This document shows, in pieces, positions 4,187-17,959 of a stretch of 21,359 nucleotides of DNA. Position numbers and translations under genes: made by a program. Origin of the DNA: a virus; the IMG/VR virus record IMGVR_UViG_3300010334_000330, positions 1-21,359 of that record, one strand, 5' to 3'. Numbering within the stretch: the stretch's first letter is position 1; each line of letters starts with the position of its first letter. Below the pieces are notes generated by a model. It saw only the letters and a list, made by a program, of their open reading frames with translations, ran no database searches and was not told where the DNA came from.

Positions 4187-4429
4187 TCATCGGCTCGCTG
4201 CCTTTACTAGATCAGTTACGTCCAAAGGTTGTCCTATTAGCTGGGCATCTTCTTCGTTGCTTTCCCAACCCGAAACCAAAATTCTTTTGGCTGTGGGTGA
4301 TTTAGCTATCCAAGTAAGCGCCTCTTCAGGGCGCTCCCCTCCCCATTCTGCCACCCCTTCTGAGTCTACTACTTCATAGAGCAAAATTAAATCAGACTTG
4401 GGTGGGTGAAATGCTATAACGTTATTCAT
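4187..4429 (-). CDS. Hypothetical protein (80 aa)
   Basis: The 80-residue product has no recognised domain: an N-terminal NNVIAFHPP, a hydrophobic strand (LILLYEVVD), a tryptophan-containing EEALTWIAK helix, and KRILVSGWES. An ideal GGAGGAAACA precedes the ATG, and those bases also code the end of the thermonuclease gene, which overlaps by eight bases. The composition looks like a small folded soluble protein. It sits between the two exported-type enzymes of the operon, but this does not establish a link. Confidence 0.65.
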   Translation of the reverse strand: MNNVIAFHPPKSDLILLYEVVDSEGVAEWGGERPEEALTWIAKSPTAKRILVSGWESNEEDAQLIGQPLDVTDLVKAASR

Positions 4430-4835
4430 TGTTTCCTCCTTTACAATTCCACAAGCCTAGACGCTTTGCCTTTGCTTGTCTACCATATTTTGCAATAAGT
4501 CCTGCATATTTGCCACGCATACCCTTAAAGAACATAGGTTTTGCGTAGCCATTACGTACGAGTTCAAGGCTAAGGTTTTCATTACCCTTAAATACGTAGT
4601 CCAAACTTCTTCCATACTCATCTTTTTGATCGAGGCTAGGGTCGGACTTAAATTCTAGTTTTGAGTTCTTTTTTAAGAAGTTTTCTGTAAATTGTTTAGC
4701 CTCTTCTGCATAGCAGGTGCCAATTTCAGGTGCGTTAATCTGCAATACCCTTATGTGTTCACGGTTCAGAACTATTGTGTCTCCGTCAATCGCATAAGGG
4801 CTTGCAGAATATAAAGCAACTGCTAGTAAGAGCAT
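4422..4835 (-). CDS. Thermonuclease-like (SNase domain) nuclease, probably exported
   Basis: A 137-residue staphylococcal-nuclease-like protein that would cut DNA or RNA using calcium. Motifs are IDGDTIVL (Asp17, Asp19), HIRVLQINAPE (Arg29, Glu37) and KDEYGRSLDYV (Arg76), which line up with the Arg/Glu/Arg catalytic set of SNase. The position usually filled by Asp in DxPE is Asn34 here, so metal binding may differ. The first 15 residues (MLLLAVALYSASPYA) look like a short signal peptide lacking the usual basic start. The C-terminal GRQAKAKRLGLW fits the family. Its ATG overlaps the stop of the upstream mini-gene as TAATG. Confidence 0.85.
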   Translation of the reverse strand: MLLLAVALYSASPYAIDGDTIVLNREHIRVLQINAPEIGTCYAEEAKQFTENFLKKNSKLEFKSDPSLDQKDEYGRSLDYVFKGNENLSLELVRNGYAKPMFFKGMRGKYAGLIAKYGRQAKAKRLGLWNCKGGNNE

Positions 4836-5070: not shown

Positions 5071-5243
5071 AATAAACACCCGCAATTCTTGACGTCTACT
5101 AAGTGGTCTCCGCAGAGCATTATTTCATTATCTTCTAATCTAATCTGACACTTTGAGCAGTACACTTCTCCCTCTTCCCAGTAGGCAGGGCGCCCGCAGT
5201 GCTCAAACGATATATCTTTTGTAGGCGTATTAGTCCAACTCAT
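5067..5243 (-). CDS. Small Cys/His-rich protein (58 aa)
   Basis: A 58-residue protein with potential zinc ligands in FEHCGR, VYCSKCQ, LCGDH and NCGCLL. The spacing suggests one or two zinc sites, less regular than in its neighbours. The start (first base 5243) overlaps the upstream stop and the end overlaps the next start, both as ATGA. No family is recognised. The central CSKC and the later CGDH could form a treble-clef or ribbon-like site. Confidence 0.6.
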   Translation of the reverse strand: MSWTNTPTKDISFEHCGRPAYWEEGEVYCSKCQIRLEDNEIMLCGDHLVDVKNCGCLL

Positions 5244-5488
5244 TTACTCTCTCCCTGTAATGTAGAATGAAAATTGATTAGATTATTTTGATCGAGTATA
5301 TCTGTCAGTTCTTCCGTTAGCTGTTCTTCTCTTCCGTTAAACTGCCCGTCTCCGAGGTATCCAAATTGCCAGCCTTCTTCGCTGTCATAGATAGTACCTT
5401 CAGGGAAGTTGGAACTCTCGGTGTCAGGGTCAATCTCCCAACCGCGTTCCTCGCTCCATTTAACTATGTAGTGATATTCCTTGCTCAT
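5240..5488 (-). CDS. Hypothetical acidic protein (82 aa)
   Basis: An 82-residue acidic protein with aromatic-rich repeats of Trp/Tyr/Phe (HYIVKWSEERGW, SEEGWQFGYLGDG) and a C-terminal helix (EEQLTEELTDILDQ). No domain is recognised. AAGGAGAAAGCGA lies before its ATG. Its last residues QGESK are coded by the purine-rich ribosome-binding site of the following gene. The strand-rich first half could be a small beta fold. Confidence 0.65.
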   Translation of the reverse strand: MSKEYHYIVKWSEERGWEIDPDTESSNFPEGTIYDSEEGWQFGYLGDGQFNGREEQLTEELTDILDQNNLINFHSTLQGESK

Positions 5489-5628
5489 TCGCTTTCTCCT
5501 TCTTTCTCTACACAGGCAGGACAGATATTGCCCTCCCTCTCTTGGTCGTCAAACTCCTCGCCACATTCGGCGCAGTCGATCAAATTTGCAACGTGGTTAG
5601 ACCACGAATCTCCGTCGTAGTAGCCCAT
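5485..5628 (-). CDS. Mini zinc-ribbon protein (47 aa)
   Basis: A 47-residue protein with CAECGEEF and, 15 residues later, CPAC: a standard four-cysteine zinc ribbon behind a short N-terminal segment (MGYYDGDSWSNHVANLID). An AAGGAG site lies 5' of the ATG (first base 5628). The end overlaps the next start as ATGA, and the tail EGESE coincides with the downstream ribosome-binding site. It was found by reading the strand directly; no specific family can be named. Confidence 0.65.
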   Translation of the reverse strand: MGYYDGDSWSNHVANLIDCAECGEEFDDQEREGNICPACVEKEGESE

Positions 5629-5752: not shown

Positions 5753-6015
5753 AGGTAGGACTCCTGTAATACATCTTCAGTAAGGCAGTCCAACGTGTAC
5801 TCAAGGCTTTCTGCTCCGTGTTGTTGAGAATCCTGCCACTCATTAGCCCACTCAGGCTGAGGAATAAACTTGTTGCCATCTAGAAAGTTCAAGTCATATC
5901 CGTCATAGCTATCCCAGTGCAGAAGTACCGAATACTCTACTCCTTCTCTCTCGAAAGTAATGCGCTTATCCCAAGCAGTTTCCTCTTTAGTAATGCCTTT
6001 AACTTCTAGTGTCAT
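5749..6015 (-). CDS. Hypothetical protein (88 aa)
   Basis: An 88-residue acidic protein with a likely beta-strand core (KRITFEREGVEYSVLLHWDS then GYDLNFLDG) and a helical C-terminus (GAESLEYTLDCLTEDVLQ). I do not recognise the family. The start overlaps the upstream stop and its own stop overlaps the next start, both as ATGA; AGAGGAGAGAGCA precedes the ATG. Its single cysteine rules out a zinc ribbon, unlike the genes around it. Confidence 0.65.
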   Translation of the reverse strand: MTLEVKGITKEETAWDKRITFEREGVEYSVLLHWDSYDGYDLNFLDGNKFIPQPEWANEWQDSQQHGAESLEYTLDCLTEDVLQESYL

Positions 6016-6218
6016 TTGCTCTCTCCTCTTTGTAGGTTGTCAATTTTGATCGACGCGCTTTCCATTATGCTGTCGAAAATTATGCCGTCAATACTGTAAG
6101 AACTCAAGACCTTTCGGGTGATATCTTCGGGGAATCCTTGAAGGATTAACTCCTTCACTATCGCCTCCTCCACCTCAAACCCGCACTCTGTACGGCTAAC
6201 TCCTGCCTTGTTAATCAT
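6012..6218 (-). CDS. Hypothetical protein (68 aa)
   Basis: I take the ATG with first base 6218, preceded by AAAGAGAGAGAAG, over a GTG 30 bases upstream that would lie deeper in the neighbouring gene. The 68-residue product is helical in appearance (ECGFEVEEAIVKELILQGFP, then DITRKVLSSYSIDGIIFDSI). It ends RGESK, coded by the next ribosome-binding site. No known family. It overlaps the upstream gene by eight bases. Confidence 0.6.
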   Translation of the reverse strand: MINKAGVSRTECGFEVEEAIVKELILQGFPEDITRKVLSSYSIDGIIFDSIMESASIKIDNLQRGESK

Positions 6219-6378
6219 CTTCTCTCTCTTTCTCGTGTAGATATCCACCCATAGTCGAGACTAGGTTTGTGTGGATTACTAGTGAGCCGTATGTGTCTTC
6301 TGTGATATGCGCGTTCGGCATATTCTCTTCAACCCATTCCTTCAGGTCTTTGAGTGTGTCTATCTCCTGTAGTTGCAC
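6211..6378 (-). CDS. Hypothetical small protein (55 aa), GTG start
   Basis: A 55-residue frame starting at GTG (first base 6378) with AGAGGGCGAA upstream; an in-frame TGA eight codons earlier limits the start. The sequence begins VQLQEIDTLKDLKEWVEENM, an amphipathic helix, followed by a strand-like GSLVIHTNLVSTMGG and a charged end. No family recognised. A competing ATG-initiated frame on the same strand ends early and is less likely. It follows a gap holding two hairpins. Confidence 0.5.
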   Translation of the reverse strand: MQLQEIDTLKDLKEWVEENMPNAHITEDTYGSLVIHTNLVSTMGGYLHEKEREDD

Positions 6379-6400
6379 CTTCGCCCTCTTTCTCTCTCAT

Positions 6401-6461
6401 CTGTCGTCTTTTGACTACAGACCGCCGTGCAGGGCAACCAATCCCTGCACGACAGACCGCC
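6401..6461 (-). other. Intergenic pair of hairpins flanked by direct repeats
   Basis: GTGCAGGG (6427-6434) pairs perfectly with CCCTGCAC (6443-6450) over an eight-base loop. The 10-base sequence ACAGACCGCC occurs directly on both sides (6417-6426 and 6452-6461). A second hairpin pairs CTGTCGTC (6401-6408) with GACTACAG (6413-6420), seven of eight bases, over a T4/A4 loop. The element fills one of the few gaps of the - strand operon, right after the stop of the membrane mini-gene. It may affect RNA stability or translation. The strand is inferred from the operon. Confidence 0.5.
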
Positions 6462-6462
6462 T

Positions 6463-6594
6463 TCAGTAAGTCTTGCCCGTCGCCTTGCAATAAATCCAGT
6501 AAACCAATTCCACGCCCTGCCATAAGAGCCAGCCTCCGACCGCGTAAGCGGTCAGGGCGAGCATTATGGAGAGAAAGTATTCAATTTCGCTCAT
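6463..6594 (-). CDS. Small membrane protein (43 aa)
   Basis: A 43-residue protein with one or two close hydrophobic segments (YFLSIMLALTAYAVGGWLLW then VELVYWIYC), a short acidic N-terminus (MSEIE) and a basic end (KATGKTY). Its ATG (first base 6594) overlaps the upstream stop as ATGA; a longer in-frame extension to 6744 runs across the whole zinc-ribbon gene and is rejected. It may be a host-membrane-acting peptide such as a small holin or superinfection protein, but this is only inference from size and hydrophobicity. Confidence 0.6.
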   Translation of the reverse strand: MSEIEYFLSIMLALTAYAVGGWLLWQGVELVYWIYCKATGKTY

Positions 6595-6752
6595 TCGTCC
6601 GACCCTGTACATTCTGAGCAGTTGTCTTCGTCCTCTCGCTCTATCAGGTCGCACTGCTGGCAGTTGAGTTCGTGGTCGTCGTCGCTGTGGATTGTGTGAA
6701 TGGCTTCGCCATAACCACAGTTTGGACATTCCAAAGAGTTCCAATCGCTCAT
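6591..6752 (-). CDS. Small triple-CxxC zinc-binding protein (53 aa)
   Basis: A 53-residue, acidic protein with three CxxC knuckles: LECPNCGYGE, NCQQCDL and NCSEC. The first two would form a zinc ribbon; the third may bind with His residues in AIHTIHSDDDH. The start overlaps the upstream stop as TAATG and the end overlaps the membrane mini-gene as ATGA. It is the largest zinc-binding member of the operon. Function unknown. Confidence 0.65.
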   Translation of the reverse strand: MSDWNSLECPNCGYGEAIHTIHSDDDHELNCQQCDLIEREDEDNCSECTGSDE

Positions 6753-6952
6753 TAGTTCTCCCCCTTCAGAATTGAGAGGACTAGACCGAGAGCGTCAGAA
6801 AAGCCCTCAGCATAGGTTCTGTCCATAGAGAGCATAGCGTCTGAGTAGTCGCTCTCCTCTTCTACTTCCTGAGCCACTTCTAGATTCTTCTCTGCTTCTT
6901 TCGCTTCTGCCTCAACCTTTGCGATGAGTTCTACGATTGTGTTCTGATTCAT
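6752..6952 (-). CDS. Coiled-coil-type hypothetical protein (66 aa)
   Basis: A 66-residue, acidic, helix-rich protein: VELIAKVEAEAKEAEKNLEV followed by DRTYAEGFSDALGLVLSIL. Heptad-like Ala/Leu/Glu spacing suggests a coiled coil or helical hairpin. The YAEGFxDALxxVLxxL ending is seen in many small phage proteins with no known role. AGAGG precedes the ATG, and the TAA overlaps the next start. Upstream lies a structured gap (6986-7040). Confidence 0.65.
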   Translation of the reverse strand: MNQNTIVELIAKVEAEAKEAEKNLEVAQEVEEESDYSDAMLSMDRTYAEGFSDALGLVLSILKGEN

Positions 6953-6985
6953 TTATTAACCTCTTCTGTTGGTTGTTGGTTATTA

Positions 6986-7040
6986 CTGACCTCGTCAGCG
7001 ACCGCGTAACGATCGGACGCCTCACGGCGTTTCGGTCTTA
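6986..7040 (-). ncRNA. Three-hairpin element, copy A
   Basis: Read on the - strand, it starts at the TAA stop of the upstream gene with TAAGACCGAA. It then forms hairpin 1 (ACGCC-GTGA-GGCGT), one C, hairpin 2 (CGATCG-TTACG-CGGTCG, one G-U wobble in RNA) and hairpin 3 (CTGAC-GAG-GTCAG). Copy B at 7250-7306 has the same order and spacing but different stem sequences. The wobble pairs only on the - strand RNA. No U-run follows, so it is not a simple terminator. Function unknown. Confidence 0.65.
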
Positions 7041-7229
7041 TGCTACGCGAAGGGTTGCCCAGCTATTTCCCTCGTTAGCCTTCTCAATCGCCTCCGATAC
7101 CATCGCCTGAAAAGCCTGCTTGAGTAGCGCGTTTCGGTCTTCCTCAGATAGTGAGAGCAAGGCTCTCGCTGTTGAGTTGGTCTCGTCTAGGTCTGTTGCT
7201 AGTTCGATTGAATAGTTGATGGTTGTCAT
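7038..7229 (-). CDS. Hypothetical protein (63 aa)
   Basis: A 63-residue protein beginning MTTINYSIELATDLDETN and continuing with a helical LSLSEEDRNALLKQAFQAMV segment. It ends WATLRVA immediately at the start of hairpin element A; its TAA is part of that element. AGAGAGAACA precedes the ATG. It lies between the two copies of the three-hairpin element, so it is the only gene bracketed by them. No family recognised. Confidence 0.6.
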   Translation of the reverse strand: MTTINYSIELATDLDETNSTARALLSLSEEDRNALLKQAFQAMVSEAIEKANEGNSWATLRVA

Positions 7230-7249
7230 TGTTCTCTCTTTTCTGTTTG

Positions 7250-7306
7250 CTGACCTCGTCAGTACCCGCCTTACGGGTAGACCGCCCTGAGGCGGTTTCG
7301 GTCTTA
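7250..7306 (-). ncRNA. Three-hairpin element, copy B
   Basis: On the - strand: TAAGACCGAA (the TAA is the stop of the upstream gene), hairpin 1 (ACCGCC-TCAG-GGCGGT), one C, hairpin 2 (TACCCG-TAAGG-CGGGTA) and hairpin 3 (CTGAC-GAG-GTCAG). All three stems are perfect. Hairpin 3 and the leading ten bases are the same as in copy A, while both strands of stems 1 and 2 changed together, which argues for conserved base pairing. It lies about 20 bases upstream of the start of the 63-residue gene. Confidence 0.65.
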
Positions 7307-7666
7307 TATCCAGCGCTGATTGAGTTCGTACCCTGCTCTCTCCTTCTCAGGGTAAAGGACGCTTGAGAGGTTATAGACAAGGTGAAAACCCATATCCATA
7401 CCGACGCCCTGTACCTTGATTACGTTGTATCCGTCCACTTGCGTACACTTCTCGCCTAGTGCCTGAGCGACGGCGTAAGTAATATCCAAGAGTCCTCCGT
7501 CCTTGATTACCTTGAGGGAGATGGCGCGGGTCATACCTGACGCGCTGACGCGTCGTAGGATTGTGTACACTTGGCGATTGTCTCCAAGAAGTTCCAAGAC
7601 TTGGCGCTTGCCTGACTGTTGGACTTGGTGAGCGTTGAACGCTCTGCGTGCTGTTTTGGTTGTCAT
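7304..7666 (-). CDS. Conserved-type phage protein, GMDMGFHLVY motif (120 aa)
   Basis: I start it at the ATG with first base 7666, after AGAGGCAAAGA; an in-frame extension to 7741 would cross a likely promoter. The 120-residue product has YTILRRVSASGMTRAISL (34-51) and GVGMDMGFHLVYNLSSVLYP (87-106), and ends GYELNQRWI. I recall this combination from a widespread phage and plasmid hypothetical family of unknown function. It is the first gene of the - strand operon, so it is probably expressed first. Its TAA is part of the three-hairpin copy B. Confidence 0.7.
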   Translation of the reverse strand: MTTKTARRAFNAHQVQQSGKRQVLELLGDNRQVYTILRRVSASGMTRAISLKVIKDGGLLDITYAVAQALGEKCTQVDGYNVIKVQGVGMDMGFHLVYNLSSVLYPEKERAGYELNQRWI

Positions 7667-7707
7667 TCTTTGCCTCTTTCGTGTGGTTGGTTGTGTCCAC
7701 AGGGAAG

Positions 7708-7737
7708 AAGATACGCCCCCGCAATTAGCAGGGTCAA
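7708..7737 (-). promoter_or_regulatory. Candidate sigma-70-type promoter for the - strand operon
   Basis: On the - strand TTGACC (7737-7732, five of six to consensus) is followed after 18 bases by TATCTT (7713-7708, four of six). Transcription would begin near 7700 and give a roughly 35-base leader to the first gene at 7666. Position and spacing are good but the -10 box is weak. A palindrome lies just upstream at 7750-7762. Confidence 0.4.
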
Positions 7738-7749
7738 CCATTTCAGCCC

Positions 7750-7762
7750 GTTATTCGATAAC
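7750..7762. promoter_or_regulatory. Palindrome 1 (possible operator)
   Basis: GTTAT-TCG-ATAAC is a perfect 5-3-5 palindrome lying just upstream of the candidate -35 box of the leftward promoter. It contains TCGATAA, which recurs at 7816-7822 within palindrome 2. A dimeric repressor or activator could bind it; no regulator gene is identifiable in the window. Confidence 0.4.
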
Positions 7763-7813
7763 ACTTTCATAACGATTTGCTGAGAGCCACCTGTGAATTG
7801 TTGCCCTGTTCAA

Positions 7814-7829
7814 TGTCGATAAGTCGACA
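7814..7829. promoter_or_regulatory. Palindrome 2 (possible operator)
   Basis: TGTCGA-TAAG-TCGACA is a perfect 6-4-6 inverted repeat. It shares TCGATAA with palindrome 1, about 61 bases away, close to six helical turns. This spacing would suit cooperative or looping binding of one regulator, but that is inference. Confidence 0.4.
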
Positions 7830-7850
7830 ATATGAAAGGCGGTCGGGTCT

Positions 7851-7870
7851 AAGTTACTGACGGGTAACTT
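7851..7870. promoter_or_regulatory. Palindrome 3 (possible operator or hairpin)
   Basis: AAGTTAC (7851-7857) and GTAACTT (7864-7870) form a perfect 7-base inverted repeat around TGACGG. It precedes the G-rich tract and the DnaA-box array. It could be an operator or part of a replication origin. Its sequence is unlike palindromes 1 and 2. Confidence 0.4.
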
Positions 7871-7958
7871 GCAGGGTCGAGGTCAGGTCGAGGGTTAGGG
7901 TGTGCAGGGGTGCCGTTTAATTAGTGACCCCTCCTATCTCTTGCAATACGGCAAGAAC

Positions 7959-8003
7959 TTATCCACATTGTTATCCACAGGCTGTGGACAGTGCTGTGGA
8001 CGG
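7959..8003. promoter_or_regulatory. DnaA-box array, candidate replication origin
   Basis: Two perfect DnaA boxes TTATCCACA lie at 7959-7967 and 7971-7979. They are followed by two reverse-oriented near-boxes, TGTGGACAG (7983-7991) and TGTGGACGG (7995-8003). All four starts are exactly 12 bases apart. An AT-rich stretch follows within about 100 bases and could be the unwinding element. Host DnaA binds such boxes to open origins; phages rarely carry so regular a set. A further GTGTCCACA lies at 7693-7701. Confidence 0.6.
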
Positions 8004-8143
8004 CTGGCAACGGGGTCGGGCGTGGCGCAAACAGACACCCCCTGTGTTAAGTTTTGACGGCTATGGTACATATACTCCCTGCAAAAATATATTTCCTAAA
8101 GTGAAACGGATCTGATATAGCCTCTGACCTGCACTTATACTGT

Positions 8144-8156
8144 ATGTGTTACACAT
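8144..8156. promoter_or_regulatory. Palindrome 4 (possible operator)
   Basis: ATGTGT-T-ACACAT is a perfect 6-1-6 palindrome. It overlaps the downstream side of a possible rightward -10 (TATACT at 8136-8141; CTGATA 18 bases before it is a weak -35), which would be a typical repressor position. Promoter support is weak. Confidence 0.35.
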
Positions 8157-8223
8157 CACATTCTAAAAACGCAAACAGCTCTTTTTTTAGCGCCTTATAT
8201 ATAGTAGGGGAGTAAAACGGGGA

Positions 8224-8310
8224 AGTGGTCCGGTTTACGAACCCTACGCTTCGGGTGAAACCCTTCGCGTAGCCCCCTAGGGCGAAGCGCCCAGTACCAC
8301 TAAACGGGCC
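8224..8310. ncRNA. Compact four-helix RNA-like element
   Basis: A closing stem AGTGGT (8224-8229)/ACCACT (8296-8301) encloses three hairpins. P2 is GGTT-TACG-AACC (8232-8243). P3 is CTACGC/GCGTAG (8244-8272), with symmetric TTC/TTC internal loops and a GGGT-GAA-ACCC tip. P4 is GGGCG-AAG-CGCCC (8280-8292). Every stem is perfect, and the block is much more G+C-rich than its flanks. It is not a tRNA: loops are too short and there is no T-loop. Bases 8301-8310 (TAAACGGGCC) can instead pair imperfectly with 8228-8237, suggesting an alternative fold. The strand cannot be fixed because no wobble pairs occur. Confidence 0.55.
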
Positions 8311-8436
8311 ATAGTTCTATCTAAATATAGATCACTGGTATATCAATATGTGAGACAGATAGCCTAGTAAAAAATTGCTACTTCCCTAGTATAAATGAAA
8401 TCCAATTCCGGCCGATTTTACTATTAGGAGCATTAC

Positions 8437-10296
8437 GTGGCAGAGAACTCAGCAGATATAGCCAAGAGGATTATCCTCGGCTGTGTGGCAGAAGGTATGA
8501 CCATTGACGCCGCTTGCGGCTTCGCTGGTAAATCTATGAAGACGTATGAGTACTACCGTCGCACCGATAAGGTATTTGCAGACAAGGTAGATCGTACAAG
8601 GTTAGGTCTGAAAGACAAGGCCTTTGCTTCCGGCGATGTTCACGATATTAACTTCGTGGAGTTCCGTCAGAAGTTTCTACACTCTAAGACTTTCCCACAT
8701 CAGATAAATCTGATTGATGTGATTGAAGGACGTGAGCCTAGCTGGCTACATCCCAGTATGAAGTTTGAACCAGGGCTGGCATCTAACCGAGTCCTAATTA
8801 ACATACCTCCCAACCACGCCAAATCCATTACGGTCACCGTAGACTATGTAACGTGGAAGGTAGCCCAGAACCCGAACTTCCGAGTTCTGATTGTATCCCA
8901 GACGCAGCAGCTAGCTGCCGACTTTCTCTACGCCATCAAGCAAAGACTGACGCATCCTATGTATGCAGACCTCCAAAGTGCTTATGCTGCTGGTGTAGGG
9001 TTTAACTCTAAGACAGCCTCCTGGCAGGCAACCCGCGTCACCTTTGGTGATGAGCTTCGTGAGTCTAGCGAAAAAGACCCGAACATCGAGGCCGTCGGTA
9101 TTGGCGGTCAGATCTACGGCAAGCGTGCCGATATGATTATCGTAGACGATGCGGTAACGCTAAAGAACGCAAATGAGTTTGAGAAGCAGATACGCTGGCT
9201 AACCCAGGACGTGAGATCTCGTCTTAACCCTACAGGTAAACTTGTAGTCATTGGTACTAGAGTTGCCTCAGTAGATTTGTACCGCGAGCTACGCCAAGAA
9301 GACCGATACCCAGGCGGTCTTGTTCCTTGGAAATATCTTGCGATGCCAGCACTCCTTGAGATTAACGAGGACCCCGACAAGTGGGTTACCTTATGGCCAG
9401 CCTCTGATGCTCCATTCGATGGACAAGAAGAAGCCGATAAGGATGAGAATGGTCTTTACCCTAGATGGTCTGGACGCAATCTTTACAATGAGCGTCAGGC
9501 TATGGACGCGAGTACGTGGGCTCTAGTATATCAACAACAGGATGTATCTGAAAACGCTGCATTCGACCCAGTATGTGTTCGTGGTTCTATGGACGGTATG
9601 CGTAAAGCAGGACGTCTGGAGATGGGCCACCCAGGTCATCCCAAGGATTTAAGTGGCTTCAGTTTTATCTGTGGTATGGACCCAGCGATTGTAGGAGATA
9701 CCGCTGCGGTCTGTTATGCCATTGATAGATCTACCAGTAAGCGCTACATCGTAGACGTTATGAAAATTACGCGTCCGTCACCGCAGCAAATTCGTGACAT
9801 TATTATTAACTGGACTCAGCTTTACAGCCCGTCCGAATGGATTATTGAGAAGAACGCATTTCAAGCTTTCTTGACTCAGGACGAAGGTATCCGTCAGTTC
9901 CTTGCAGGACGTGGCGTTGTACTGCGTGAGCACCATACCGGTTCTAATAAATGGGATACCGGATTCGGTGTGGCATCTATGGCTACGCTCTTTGGTACTA
10001 AGCAAGCAGATGGCAAGCACCATAGAGATAACCTAATACATCTACCTAGTGATCAGACAGAGAATATCAAAGCCCTAGTAGAGCAGTTAATTACCTGGAC
10101 TCCTACGACTAAGGGTAAGACCGATATCGTAATGGCTCTCTGGTTCTGTGAGATTAGAGCAAGAGAGATGCTCAACTATGGACAGTACGCTACGCATCAC
10201 CTTAAAAACCCTTTCCTATCTCGTGCCGAGCTAGGGAAACGTGTAGTCATTAACATTGACGAAGCACTAGCAGCACAAAATAAAACATTCGTATAG
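8437..10296 (+). CDS. terL: Terminase large subunit with N-terminal helix-turn-helix
   Basis: This 619-residue protein is the DNA-packaging motor. The ATPase has Walker A NIPPNHAKS (residues 122-130), Walker B MIIVDDA (233-239) and a motif III VIGTR (271-275). The nuclease has GMDPA (Asp415), IIEKNAFQ (Glu471) and TDIVMALWF (Asp563). Residues 1-56 (AEGMTIDAACGFAGKSMKTY and following YYRRTD) resemble the helix-turn-helix of small terminases, and no separate small terminase gene is seen next to it. The GTG start follows TTAGGAG, nine bases away. It begins the rightward head operon. Confidence 0.92.
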   Translation: MAENSADIAKRIILGCVAEGMTIDAACGFAGKSMKTYEYYRRTDKVFADKVDRTRLGLKDKAFASGDVHDINFVEFRQKFLHSKTFPHQINLIDVIEGREPSWLHPSMKFEPGLASNRVLINIPPNHAKSITVTVDYVTWKVAQNPNFRVLIVSQTQQLAADFLYAIKQRLTHPMYADLQSAYAAGVGFNSKTASWQATRVTFGDELRESSEKDPNIEAVGIGGQIYGKRADMIIVDDAVTLKNANEFEKQIRWLTQDVRSRLNPTGKLVVIGTRVASVDLYRELRQEDRYPGGLVPWKYLAMPALLEINEDPDKWVTLWPASDAPFDGQEEADKDENGLYPRWSGRNLYNERQAMDASTWALVYQQQDVSENAAFDPVCVRGSMDGMRKAGRLEMGHPGHPKDLSGFSFICGMDPAIVGDTAAVCYAIDRSTSKRYIVDVMKITRPSPQQIRDIIINWTQLYSPSEWIIEKNAFQAFLTQDEGIRQFLAGRGVVLREHHTGSNKWDTGFGVASMATLFGTKQADGKHHRDNLIHLPSDQTENIKALVEQLITWTPTTKGKTDIVMALWFCEIRAREMLNYGQYATHHLKNPFLSRAELGKRVVINIDEALAAQNKTFV

Positions 10297-13540: not shown

Positions 13541-16500
13541 ATGTCATCAAACTGGATAACGCCTGATCTAGCGCGTAACCCATCGCTGGCATTTGATGTA
13601 TCTAATCAAAAAGACCCTAGCGCTGTATCACAGCTTGTATCACATACTTCAAAAACAGTTGCAGTTAGTGATGCAGTAAATAGCCATATTGCAACTACTG
13701 GCTCACAGGGTTTCTGGTCTAAATTAGGACACGGTGCAGTTACTGGACTTGAATGGCTTGGTAAGCCACTACAAGAAGTGCAGAAAGATTATAAGTTTGT
13801 CCACTCTGTGTATACAGATCACGGATTTTTACCTGGCTTTGTTGCTACCCTTGGCATTACAGCTGGTGGTATTGGTGGTGCAATACTAGGTGGTGGAGTT
13901 GGAGCAGCACTTGGTGCTGATTTAGCTGCAACTACTTTACGTTATACAATGGGAAACTTTTACAAAGATTCATATGCTAAGTCTGAAGACCCAAATTATA
14001 AGGTATCACCCGGACGTGACTTTTCAAATGGCTTAGCTTCAGCAGTAGATGGTCTTGGTGGACCACAAGCTGCAGTTAAAGCACTAAAGAATACTAATTC
14101 TGGTATTGGTAAAATTACATCAGGTATTGGTGACTTGGGATTTGATATCACAGCAGATCCAATAATGATTGTTGGTCGTTTTGGTCAACTAATGCGTGGT
14201 GGAAAATACCTTAAACTAGGTGATGCAGCAGAGATTCAACTTCGCTACCCTATTATGAATACCATTCCTGGTATTAAAAATTTTTTAACTGCACGTACCG
14301 GTGTTGCGCTTACATCTGAACAGATGGATGCTGTATACAAAGGCACAGGTTTATTTAATGCAACTGCTCGCACTTATCGTGCAGCTCTTGATGATATTGC
14401 TAAATCAACTGCTGGTGAAATTATTCAAAAGTACCCAGCACTTGGAACATCAGCAGCTGGTCGCTTAGGAAAGATTGATACACCTGAAAAAGTACACCAG
14501 TTCTTAAAGGAAAGTCTATTTTTTGGTGAGCAAGAAGGAACTCTTGCTGGTCAAGCAATGCTTCCAACACGTACTTTACTTAAAGCAAAACTTGGTGACT
14601 CACAGGTAGTTGATTATTTGCGTAATGATGGCTCGCTACCAGGAAAGATTTACAAGACTTTCTCTGGATATATGCCTTACTCAATAGATCCTAAAACTCT
14701 TGAACTTTCAACTACAAAGTTTCGTTGGAATGCTAATGATGCAGCAACTGTAATCTACAGAATTGCACGATTTGGTATGGGCGATAGCGCAGCCAAAGAG
14801 TGGGCTGGCAAATATGCAGAATCAGTAGCAGTTGGTGACCAAGCGCTCGCTCGTTCTATTAAGAATCAAGCAATTTATCACACACTTCTTGCTGCTGGCC
14901 TCCCTGCTGATAATGCTATTGTATCAAAAGCTTGGGAAGAAGTAAGCAAATTAGGTGAGCCACTTGCAAGTTCACAGATTTATGGTGTGCATCCTGACGG
15001 AAATACAATCGGTGAATATGTAGCAAATGGTACACGCAAAGTTGGTGCTTTGTTTGAACACCAAGCAACAGATATGTTTGATATTCCAGACTTTATGACT
15101 ATTAAAGCTGCTATGCGTGAATCTGGACAGCTTTCTAAAGTACTAGGCAAAACTGATGATTTTATTTCCAAAAAATACACAGATAAAATCTTTAAGCCTT
15201 TAGCACTTGCTACAGCAGGATTTGGTCTTCGAGTAGCATCAGCAGAACTTATACCTACATTTGCCCGTTATGGTGTAATCAATACATTCAAGGCAAAGAT
15301 TGCAACAACAGTTGCCAAGAGTGGATATAATCTTGTTAAAGGTGAGGATGAGCATATTATTTCGGCAGCACTAGTAAGCCTTGGTGCTGGTGATGGTATT
15401 TCAGCAGATGTACTTGAAAAAGGTTTTCCTGCATTTAAGGAAGCAAAACGCCTTGGTCTAAACTTTGCAGCTAAAATGGTTCCAGCTGATCAAATAGATG
15501 TTGCTGTAAAGTTAATGATGGCAAATGATGCACACATTCTTGCAGAAGCTGTATCTACTGGACACGGTTATGATGTAAATAATGCTTACCAAGCATCACA
15601 GGCAGCTCATTATTATTTCCAAATTCAAAAGAATAGTCCTCTATATAGAGACTTGCCAGAATATACAACATACTCACCATCCGATAAACACTTTGTGCCT
15701 CGCTATGTAACTACACTAAATAAAGCATCAAAGGATATTGCTCAACGTAACATTTCGCGTGATGCACTTCAAGTAAGCCAGAAGTTGCGTGCTGCAGTTA
15801 AGGCATCAGGAGAACCATTATCACCAGCAATTATAGGTGAAGAGTTCTATACAACAAAGGCTTATCAAGAATTTAGAGATGCTCTTATCAATAGAGAATA
15901 CTCACGTATGCTTGATGCTACTAAGGGCAAATTCAAAGGTTATGACGAAGAAATAAAAACTATTACTCGCTGGAGAGATTCAGTAGCTAATGGTGATTTA
16001 CACGTCTTTGCAGCAGACCGTGTTGATGCAACACTTGGTATATTGATGGGTAAAGATGGAACGTTTCACACAGACTTTGCTCGCAACATTGCAGAAGGCC
16101 GCAGCACAGACCTTAATACTGTTGCAGAGATTGCAAAGTCAAAGCAGCAATCTATGCCACGTAGCGTTTCAGGACCTATCCTTCAGTCATATGTAGAAGG
16201 AACTACTGGATTTGAAAAGTTAATTAACATAGGCTTTAAGAAATTCATTGATCCTATTGTTAATAACCTATCTCGTGAAACTCTTTATACCATTCACGTA
16301 GGAGATTCCTTAGCCCGATTAGCACCTCGCATCGGTGCAGGGCTTACAGAAGATCAGGCTCTACGTATTGCACAGACACAATCTGTATACTCAATGTTAC
16401 CTCAGATTCACAACGTGGCACTTCGTAGCCAGTTTGCACAGATAGCCCGTAACTTTTTGCCATTCTACTTTGCTCAAGAACAAGCTCTTAAGCGTGCATT

Positions 16501-17959
16501 TAATACTCTTAAAGATACAAGTATTCTAAACCCAGCATTCTCGCGTGGATTCCGTTTCTATCAACTAGCAGAACAGTCTCTTAATGACCCAGGTTTTATT
16601 GAGTCAGATGAGAATGGAAATCGCTATCTGTATCTTCCAGTAGTTGGCGCATTTGGTGAAGGATTGCAAAGCGGTCTTTCTTACTTTGGTGCTAACATTC
16701 AATCAGGTTTGCCTATCACTGCTAAAGGCTCATTGATTTCTTTGAAATCAGTACTACCAGAATTGCAGATGCCTGGAGTATCACCATTTGTGGCTGTTGG
16801 TGGAAATATCATTACTAACTTTTTCCCAGCAACCAAGCCTATTGTTGATAAAGGTATTGGTGCTATATCTGTAGATAGAGGTATTGTAGATACTCTTATC
16901 CCTGCAGCTTGGGCAAAGACTTTTGTATCAGCAGCATCATCTTGGTTACCAGGTGGAGGCATTGACCTTAACCGACAGATGGGTAATGCTATCTCTTCAG
17001 CGCTAGCGTCAGCATACTACAATGGAAAAGTACCAGGGCCTGATTCAAATGAGTATGAGCGTCAAGCATTTGTAGATCGTATTAAGAATAATGCTCGCTC
17101 AATCTTGTTAATCAAGACATTCTTAAACCTTACATCACCACTTGCTCCAACTATTTCACAGGAAGATTCTGGATTCCGCGATGAGTTTTGGAAACTTGTA
17201 AAGTCAAAGGGTAACTTTGCTGATGCCTTGCAGACATTCTTAAATGAGCACGGCGATACTGCTATCTCTTACACAGTAGCAAAGACTTATTCAAATGTAC
17301 CAGGAGCTAAGGTTCCTTATATCCAGCCAACTATTGACTTTATTAAAAATAACCATCAGTTATTTGATATTAAAAATGGTACATCAAGTGGTGCATTCTT
17401 CCTAGTACCACAAGATGGTATTCAGGATCAGTCATCACGTACTGTATATAACGAATTGATGGCTATGCACTTTAGAAGCGAGCGCACACCTGCAGAACTT
17501 CTCAAGCAGTTCTATATTGCTCAGGGTGACCAAGCAATGTCTCAAGAAATTAAACAACACCTTGAGACTATGAAGACTGCTATTGACCCATTCTCACGCC
17601 AGCAAGAAAGAACTCGTTGGTCTGGAATTGTCGAGCAGATGAAAAACTTTTACCCAATCTGGTACAAGGATTACACATCAGGCGGGGCTGCAACAAATGC
17701 TCAAACCGCTTATAACCAAATTGTAAAGATTCTTGGTAGTGACCAGAATCCAAAAGATAAGCAATCACAACTTGTTGGAGATTTGGTAAAGAAGTACCAA
17801 GATCATCAACAACAGATGAATCAATACCAAGCACTAAACCTTCAAGGGTTTATGGTTCAGCAAAATAAAGATAGTTGGAATGAATACCTAACTCAACTAT
17901 CTGTGGATGAGCCACGATTGACAACAGTAATTAACAGCGTATTTATGAAGTTGGGATAA
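13541..17959 (+). CDS. Very large virion protein, candidate ejection protein (1472 aa)
   Basis: A 1472-residue protein with no motif I can assign with certainty. Near residues 99-131 is a glycine-rich hydrophobic segment (AGGIGGAILGGGVGAALGAD), the kind found in membrane-inserting virion proteins. The rest is mainly soluble and helix-rich, with charged stretches and a Gln-rich C-terminus. It lies between portal and scaffold. The size and glycine zipper suggest an internal protein released on infection to help DNA cross the envelope; a MuF-like head protein is an alternative by position. AAGGATTCTAA precedes the start, right after the previous stop. Confidence 0.6.
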   Translation: MSSNWITPDLARNPSLAFDVSNQKDPSAVSQLVSHTSKTVAVSDAVNSHIATTGSQGFWSKLGHGAVTGLEWLGKPLQEVQKDYKFVHSVYTDHGFLPGFVATLGITAGGIGGAILGGGVGAALGADLAATTLRYTMGNFYKDSYAKSEDPNYKVSPGRDFSNGLASAVDGLGGPQAAVKALKNTNSGIGKITSGIGDLGFDITADPIMIVGRFGQLMRGGKYLKLGDAAEIQLRYPIMNTIPGIKNFLTARTGVALTSEQMDAVYKGTGLFNATARTYRAALDDIAKSTAGEIIQKYPALGTSAAGRLGKIDTPEKVHQFLKESLFFGEQEGTLAGQAMLPTRTLLKAKLGDSQVVDYLRNDGSLPGKIYKTFSGYMPYSIDPKTLELSTTKFRWNANDAATVIYRIARFGMGDSAAKEWAGKYAESVAVGDQALARSIKNQAIYHTLLAAGLPADNAIVSKAWEEVSKLGEPLASSQIYGVHPDGNTIGEYVANGTRKVGALFEHQATDMFDIPDFMTIKAAMRESGQLSKVLGKTDDFISKKYTDKIFKPLALATAGFGLRVASAELIPTFARYGVINTFKAKIATTVAKSGYNLVKGEDEHIISAALVSLGAGDGISADVLEKGFPAFKEAKRLGLNFAAKMVPADQIDVAVKLMMANDAHILAEAVSTGHGYDVNNAYQASQAAHYYFQIQKNSPLYRDLPEYTTYSPSDKHFVPRYVTTLNKASKDIAQRNISRDALQVSQKLRAAVKASGEPLSPAIIGEEFYTTKAYQEFRDALINREYSRMLDATKGKFKGYDEEIKTITRWRDSVANGDLHVFAADRVDATLGILMGKDGTFHTDFARNIAEGRSTDLNTVAEIAKSKQQSMPRSVSGPILQSYVEGTTGFEKLINIGFKKFIDPIVNNLSRETLYTIHVGDSLARLAPRIGAGLTEDQALRIAQTQSVYSMLPQIHNVALRSQFAQIARNFLPFYFAQEQALKRAFNTLKDTSILNPAFSRGFRFYQLAEQSLNDPGFIESDENGNRYLYLPVVGAFGEGLQSGLSYFGANIQSGLPITAKGSLISLKSVLPELQMPGVSPFVAVGGNIITNFFPATKPIVDKGIGAISVDRGIVDTLIPAAWAKTFVSAASSWLPGGGIDLNRQMGNAISSALASAYYNGKVPGPDSNEYERQAFVDRIKNNARSILLIKTFLNLTSPLAPTISQEDSGFRDEFWKLVKSKGNFADALQTFLNEHGDTAISYTVAKTYSNVPGAKVPYIQPTIDFIKNNHQLFDIKNGTSSGAFFLVPQDGIQDQSSRTVYNELMAMHFRSERTPAELLKQFYIAQGDQAMSQEIKQHLETMKTAIDPFSRQQERTRWSGIVEQMKNFYPIWYKDYTSGGAATNAQTAYNQIVKILGSDQNPKDKQSQLVGDLVKKYQDHQQQMNQYQALNLQGFMVQQNKDSWNEYLTQLSVDEPRLTTVINSVFMKLG

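What the first reader, a model, noticed from the sequence alone, without database searches (positions are those of the whole stretch)
6986..7306. Repeated three-hairpin element with covarying stems
Copies at 6986-7040 and 7250-7306 share the same layout. Each has a TAAGACCGAA start that includes the stop codon of the gene before it, hairpin 1, a single base, hairpin 2, and an identical hairpin 3. In hairpins 1 and 2 both strands of the stem differ between copies yet still pair: TACCCG/CGGGTA versus CGATCG/CGGTCG, the latter with a wobble that works only on the - strand RNA. That is compensatory change, the usual sign of selected RNA structure. No U-run follows, so it is not a plain terminator. 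It could be a processing site, stability element or protein-binding site around the 63-residue gene.
Basis: partly seen in the sequence, partly recalled or inferred. Interest (0 to 1): 0.75.

Follow-up and report, generated by a model that had tools for sequence, protein, structure and literature searches.

The report
Paired hammerhead ribozymes between phage genes
The two "three-hairpin" copies are type II hammerhead ribozymes, RNAs predicted to cut themselves, each placed exactly on the stop codon of a small phage gene; hundreds of other uncultured phages carry them at the same kind of site, which suggests they chop one long phage message into single-gene messages.

Summary
Read on the - strand, both copies are type II hammerhead ribozymes (stem II open): 5'-A-GACC-GAA-[A stem III U]-C^[stem I]-CUGACGA-GGUC-AG. 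Copy 2 (7303-7252) passes Rfam's Hammerhead_II cut-off. A model built from 56 such elements scores the copies 75.7 and 72.1 bits, E about 1e-19 and 1e-18. Stems I and III covary strongly across phages, and stem II does too.

Across 443 held-out ribozymes, 67% sit within 6 nt of an upstream stop codon (2.3% of random positions), and a start codon follows at a median of 21 nt. In multi-ribozyme loci all copies lie on one strand in 109 of 110 cases. Best explanation: self-cleavage splits a polycistronic early transcript after each stop codon, leaving hairpin-capped ends. In the window this frees a 264-nt RNA carrying the 63-residue gene. Nothing was tested at the bench.

The class, its presence in phages and its clustering around genes are known (PMC3088659). 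Stop-codon embedding, the invariant A-1 and the core-competing tail appear undescribed in the papers I could search.

The parts
7252..7303 (-). Hammerhead ribozyme copy 2 (first in transcription order): stem II GACC 7303-7300 / GGTC 7255-7252; GAA 7299-7297; stem III 7296-7281 with loop TCAG; C17 at 7280; stem I 7279-7263 with loop TAAGG; core CTGACGA 7262-7256. Predicted cut between 7280 and 7279.
   Evidence: Rfam RF02276 39.2 bits, cut-off 37; model R1 75.7 bits, E 2e-19
6988..7037 (-). Hammerhead ribozyme copy 1: stem II GACC 7037-7034 / GGTC 6991-6988; GAA 7033-7031; stem III 7030-7017 with loop GTGA; C17 at 7016; stem I 7015-6999 with loop TTACG; core CTGACGA 6998-6992. Predicted cut between 7016 and 7015.
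   Evidence: Model R1 72.1 bits, E 2e-18; not listed by Rfam at E <= 1
7250..7262 (-).
   Evidence: Minimum-energy fold; within 0.3 kcal/mol of the hammerhead fold
6986..6998 (-). Alternative hairpin of copy 1, identical sequence
   Evidence: 0.4 kcal/mol from the hammerhead fold
7304..7306 (-). TAA stop codon of the upstream gene; its last A (7304) is the ribozyme's invariant A-1
   Evidence: A-1 is A in 56/56 of alignment A1 and 398/408 held-out ribozymes
7038..7040 (-). TAA stop codon of the 63-residue gene; its last A (7038) is A-1 of copy 1
7304..7666 (-). Upstream gene, 120 aa from ATG 7666 (the ORF opens at 7741), PHROG 12365, function unknown
7038..7229 (-). 63-residue gene between the two ribozymes; no family match; ATG 22 nt after stem II of copy 2
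7016..7279 (-). Predicted 264-nt RNA released if both ribozymes cut: 5'-OH, stem I hairpin, leader, 63-aa ORF, stop, stem III hairpin, 2',3'-cyclic phosphate
   Evidence: Calculated from the cleavage sites; chemistry from established hammerhead biochemistry
6752..6952 (-). Next gene downstream, 66 aa, acidic, no family match; ATG 35 nt after stem II of copy 1

Best explanation
Each copy is a type II hammerhead ribozyme placed between the stop codon of one small gene and the ribosome-binding site of the next, in the leftward operon of an uncultured tailed phage. SHOWN by sequence and comparison: the hammerhead core and three covarying stems; on the coding strand; stop codon abutting or shared with the ribozyme; start codon shortly downstream; the same arrangement in hundreds of contigs with unrelated neighbouring genes. 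INFERRED: the transcript cuts itself at 7280^7279 and 7016^7015, turning a polycistronic message into single-gene messages. Because stem II is the open one, each cut leaves an intact hairpin at both new ends: stem III plus 2',3'-cyclic phosphate right after the stop codon, and stem I plus 5'-OH at the start of the next message. Such ends should resist exonucleases and 5'-end-dependent decay and uncouple the genes. FURTHER INFERENCE: the tail re-pairs with the core (CUGAY/RUCAG), breaking stem II, the only helix that holds the two products together. This would release the products and make the cut irreversible, or delay cutting.
For: Rfam Hammerhead_II over its cut-off. Model R1 on both copies. 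Alignment of 56 elements: 99.9% of pair cells paired against 71.8% in shuffles, covariation score 0.695 against 0.127, 9 of 15 pairs changed on both sides. Stem II sequence varies and still pairs (GACC/GGTC, GATC/GATC, GGAC/GTCC, GAAC/GTTC, AGGC/GCCT and others). Core intact in 628 elements against 5 with one change, 3 of them U4C (most of the 628 were selected for an intact core). Stop codon within 6 nt of A-1 in 131/162 and 296/443 held-out, against 2.6% and 2.3% of random positions. Start codon median 24 and 21 nt downstream. One strand per locus in 109 of 110 multi-copy loci, median spacing 540 nt; up to 7 in 4 kb or 12 in one locus. Homologues of the upstream gene without the element have overlapping or abutting stop/start. 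Published relatives cut in vitro and in E. coli, and clusters flank genes (PMC3088659).
Against: No cleavage or transcript data for this phage. Patchy: 8 of 43 terminase relatives. The predicted minimum-energy fold of both copies is the non-catalytic one. The core-competing tail is not universal: it is typical of the GACC/GGTC class (AG tail in 99/116) but not of GGTC/GACC (11/147), so it cannot be the general mechanism. The loop I-tail pseudoknot reported for many type II hammerheads is not seen above chance here.
Confidence: 0.8

Rival explanations
1. Regulated ribozyme: the element switches between the active hammerhead and the core-sequestering hairpin. A ribosome finishing at the overlapping stop codon covers GACCGAAA and keeps it off; cutting happens only when the upstream gene is no longer being translated.
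For: The two folds differ by 0.3-0.4 kcal/mol in both copies and by at most 1 kcal/mol in 83% of 113 GACC-class elements, against 18% with shuffled tails. Where the arm does not end in UC, a separate NUCAG tail can appear whose first base matches the core (T-A 28, C-G 12, T-G 2, mismatch 1; Fisher p 8e-9 on the paired cells).
Against: The near-equal energies reflect one shared motif inherited many times, and energies ignore tertiary contacts. Most GGTC/GACC and GGAC/GTCC ribozymes lack the feature. The cells are not phylogenetically independent.
Confidence: 0.25
2. Circularisation: the two ribozymes excise the 264-nt RNA and its ends are joined (by RtcB or by the ribozyme itself), giving a circular message for the 63-residue protein.
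For: Two ribozymes flank one gene, as in plant retrozymes; cyclic phosphate and 5'-OH ends are RtcB substrates (established knowledge).
Against: 276 of 386 loci hold a single ribozyme (many are fragments), which cannot release a circle. Perreault and colleagues looked for circular products of tandem hammerheads and found none (PMC3088659).
Confidence: 0.07
3. Selfish or cassette element: the ribozyme DNA marks small gene cassettes that move between phages, and self-cleavage mainly removes its cost to the interrupted operon.
For: Patchy occurrence, unrelated neighbouring genes, exact placement after stop codons where relatives have fused stop/start.
Against: Stems covary instead of being conserved as DNA, so selection acts on the RNA. 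No target-site duplication or mobility gene was seen, although this was not searched systematically.
Confidence: 0.15
4. Non-catalytic stabilising hairpins or a protein-binding site.
For: The predicted minimum-energy fold is three hairpins.
Against: The single-stranded core (CUGANGA, GAA, the A-U pair and the H17 position) is kept with 5 exceptions in over 600, and stem II pairs over a long distance with changing sequence. Neither is explained by hairpins alone.
Confidence: 0.05

Closest known systems
Type II hammerhead ribozymes of bacteria and prophages (Rfam RF02276; Perreault et al. 2011, PMC3088659)
   Same: Core, permuted architecture with stem II open, clusters flanking single genes, phage setting, ardA among neighbours (Pfam ArdA in 3 of 142 downstream genes)
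   Different: Loop I-tail pseudoknot not above chance in the GACC-seeded set; stem II mostly exactly 4 bp with a near-invariant 5' A-1; in this class a tail complementary to the core; embedded in or abutting stop codons; Rfam's cut-off finds only 3 of 39 in six loci
Hammerheads of free phages and haloviruses (PaP3, Bcep176, HF1/HF2 in PMC3088659)
   Same: Phage intergenic position; in HF1/HF2 the ribozyme lies 13 nt upstream of an early gene
   Different: Those are described as core variants; here cores are intact and there is often one ribozyme per gene
Retrozymes and other circular-RNA hammerheads
   Same: Two ribozymes in tandem a few hundred nt apart
   Different: Type I or III, non-coding or retroelement setting; here type II around a phage coding gene

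Membership tests
Type II hammerhead ribozyme (RF02276) | Catalytic core CUGANGA ... GAAA ... UH at the cleavage site | tested here: met
   Both copies exact; descriptor
Type II hammerhead ribozyme (RF02276) | Stems I and III closed by loops, stem II open, all three supported by covariation | tested here: met
   Stems I and III. Stem II: arms vary and pair across classes
Type II hammerhead ribozyme (RF02276) | Score over Rfam's gathering cut-off | tested here: met
   Copy 2: 39.2 bits against 37. Copy 1 alone is not listed, but it has the same core and scores 72.1 bits with R1
Type II hammerhead ribozyme (RF02276) | Pseudoknot between loop I and the 3' tail (common, not strictly defining: PMC3088659 reports it for a majority of type II motifs) | tested here: not met
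   Not above permuted tails: 42 against 36.6. Copy 1 could form UUAC/GUAA; copy 2 could not
Type II hammerhead ribozyme (RF02276) | Self-cleavage giving 5'-OH and 2',3'-cyclic phosphate | not testable with these tools
   Needs in vitro transcription
Intrinsic terminator | GC-rich hairpin followed by a U-run | tested here: not met
   None in 6300-8440
Retrozyme / hammerhead circular RNA | Covalently closed RNA made by paired ribozymes | not testable with these tools
   Single copies prevail (many loci are fragments)

The most novel reading that the evidence does not exclude
A phage-wide RNA punctuation system: bistable hammerheads built into stop codons, in which the end of translation of one gene gates the cut that releases the next gene's message, and the tail hairpin then makes the cut irreversible.
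Probability: 0.2. Interest if true: 0.85.

Novelty: new member of a known kind. Interest (0 to 1): 0.55.

Why it matters
What hammerheads do in bacteria and phages is described as an open question (PMC6155905). The data here tie them to one precise place, between a stop codon and the next ribosome-binding site, on one strand, often after each gene in a row, in several hundred phage contigs. That makes a specific and cheap test possible and suggests a protein-free way for phages to cut operons into single-gene messages. It also shows that Rfam's model under-detects this class (3 of 39 in six loci) and that Rfam missed one of the two copies in this window.

Tried and rejected
Terminator: none found. 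Pseudoknot loop I-tail: not above permuted control. A third element at 7147-7132 (CTGAGGAAGACCGAAA): too short for stem II, inside the 63-residue gene, not found by the model; chance. Universality of the core-competing tail: strong in the first set (29 of 51 against 5.5 expected), but in held-out classes only 65 of 344 against 32 expected, within the range of permuted cores, so limited to some classes. Host-genome occurrence: the exact pattern found 5 stretches in 84,980 genomes, of which two or three look real; the phylum-wide Rfam search found none in 396 genomes, but its control did not ring either, so it proves nothing. Isolated relatives: no near match in phage records for the window or three other ribozyme loci. 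Anti-restriction enrichment: Pfam ArdA in 3 of 142 downstream genes against 0 of 140 control genes, too few to claim.

Full report
WHAT IS THERE. On the - strand copy 2 reads TAA GACC GAA ACCGCC TCAG GGCGGU C^ UACCCG UAAGG CGGGUA CUGACGA GGUC AG, and copy 1 reads TAA GACC GAA ACGCC GUGA GGCGU C^ CGAUCG UUACG CGGUCG CUGACGA GGUC AG. This is the hammerhead ribozyme in its type II permutation: stems I and III closed, stem II (GACC/GGUC) open. Rfam's Hammerhead_II model matches copy 2 above its cut-off. A covariance model built from 56 non-redundant relatives gives 75.7 and 72.1 bits in the window and nothing else above 10 bits. The window copies are among the 56, so those scores are partly by construction; the independent evidence is the Rfam match and the descriptor search.

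COMPARATIVE EVIDENCE. A pattern with the core and the GACC/GGTC stem but free loops found at least 119 virus contigs. Over 56 non-redundant sequences 99.9% of pair cells pair, against 71.8% in shuffles and 28-40% when the partners are slid, with a covariation score of 0.695 against 0.127. A descriptor with a free stem II found many other stem II sequences, all pairing, with 1 hit in 4 Mb of shuffled DNA. Four further scans with other stem II sequences gave a held-out set of 443 elements in 280 loci after removing near-duplicates. In all, 675 unique elements were found, 119 of which match none of the five search patterns. The core is intact in 628 elements and has one change in 5; most of these loci were selected for an intact core, so the 119 unselected ones are the fairer denominator.

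POSITION. The base before stem II is A in 56/56 and in 398/408 held-out elements with a 4-bp stem, although no search pattern asked for it. That A is usually part of the upstream gene's stop codon or directly behind it: TAG shares both its A and its G with the ribozyme in 63 of 162 and 91 of 443 cases, and TAA ends on it in 21 and 46. A stop codon of an ORF of at least 40 codons lies within 6 nt in 131/162 and 296/443, against 2.6% and 2.3% of random positions in the same contigs. A start codon follows within 80 nt in 156/162 and 432/443, median 24 and 21 nt. Multi-ribozyme loci have all copies on one strand in 109 of 110 cases, with median spacing 540 nt. One phage record has seven in 4 kb, and another locus has twelve.

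THE WINDOW'S PHAGE. The large terminase is about 43% identical to that of Streptomyces phages and the portal gene matches PHROG 104, so this is a tailed phage, perhaps of an actinobacterium (inference). A 39,113-base contig of the same phage (L121) has the same two ribozymes and no others. Among 43 terminase relatives with at least 3 kb of flank, 8 have ribozymes, always on the opposite strand to terminase and 1.1-2.3 kb from it. Homologues of the upstream gene without the ribozyme mostly have TAATG, with stop and start overlapping, where the window has TAA followed by the ribozyme. The ribozyme thus separates genes at a junction that relatives keep translationally coupled.

MECHANISM. Established hammerhead chemistry predicts a cut after C17, at 7280^7279 and 7016^7015. 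It would free a 264-nt RNA with the 63-residue ORF. In the type II layout the cut leaves stem III at the new 3' end and stem I at the new 5' end, so every product is capped by its own hairpin. After the cut only stem II holds the products together. The two folds are within 0.4 kcal/mol in the window and within 1 kcal/mol in 83% of the GACC class, against 18% with shuffled tails. Where the stem II arm does not end in UC, some elements carry a separate NUCAG tail whose N matches core position 7 (T-A 28, C-G 12, T-G 2, one mismatch; Fisher p 8e-9 without phylogenetic correction). The AG tail follows the GACC/GGUC arms (99/116) but not the swapped GGUC/GACC arms (11/147). I read this as a release or timing hairpin in some classes, not as a general property.

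GENE CONTENT. Neighbours are small, diverse and mostly unknown; the few with names include ArdA and other anti-restriction families, DUF932 and AAA ATPases. Control genes from the same contigs show methylases, SSB and WhiB and no ArdA. The numbers are too small for a claim but agree with the ardA link in PMC3088659.

WHAT IS KNOWN. Type II hammerheads, their presence in phages and prophages, their clustering around genes, and self-cleavage of such clusters in vitro and in E. coli were reported in 2011 (PMC3088659). The 2017 review calls their role in prokaryotes open and notes small non-conserved flanking ORFs (PMC6155905). The 2011 paper does not contain the phrase 'stop codon'. My searches of the open library found no report of stop-codon embedding, but preprints and most subscription journals were not searchable.

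VERDICT. Observation confirmed; identity: two new members of a known ribozyme class. The general rule about where they sit is the interesting part and is directly testable.

Noticed in passing
window 7959-7967 and 7971-7979: Two perfect TTATCCACA boxes (DnaA-box consensus, from general knowledge) in the divergent intergenic region between the leftward operon and the terminase operon; possible replication origin.
   Followed up: no
window 5240-5628 and 6012-6248 (-): Junctions of the same operon without ribozymes place the ribosome-binding site inside the end of the upstream gene with ATGA overlaps, which gives several small proteins the same C-terminus GESK or GESE.
   Followed up: partly
window 6426-6451 and 8244-8272: A perfect 9-bp inverted repeat with an 8-nt loop, and an imperfect 13-bp one, both in or near intergenic stretches; not hammerheads and without a T-run.
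   Followed up: no
L121, L230, L096, L025, L010, L356: Rfam RF02276 at its cut-off finds 3 of the 39 type II hammerheads that a descriptor finds there; the family model is too narrow for phage elements.
   Followed up: yes
L356: Twelve type II hammerheads on one strand within one viral contig stretch.
   Followed up: partly
window 4422-4835 (-): Staphylococcal-nuclease-like gene (Pfam SNase) in the same leftward gene block.
   Followed up: no
window 13541-17959 (+): 1472-residue ORF in the structural operon with no PHROG match.
   Followed up: no
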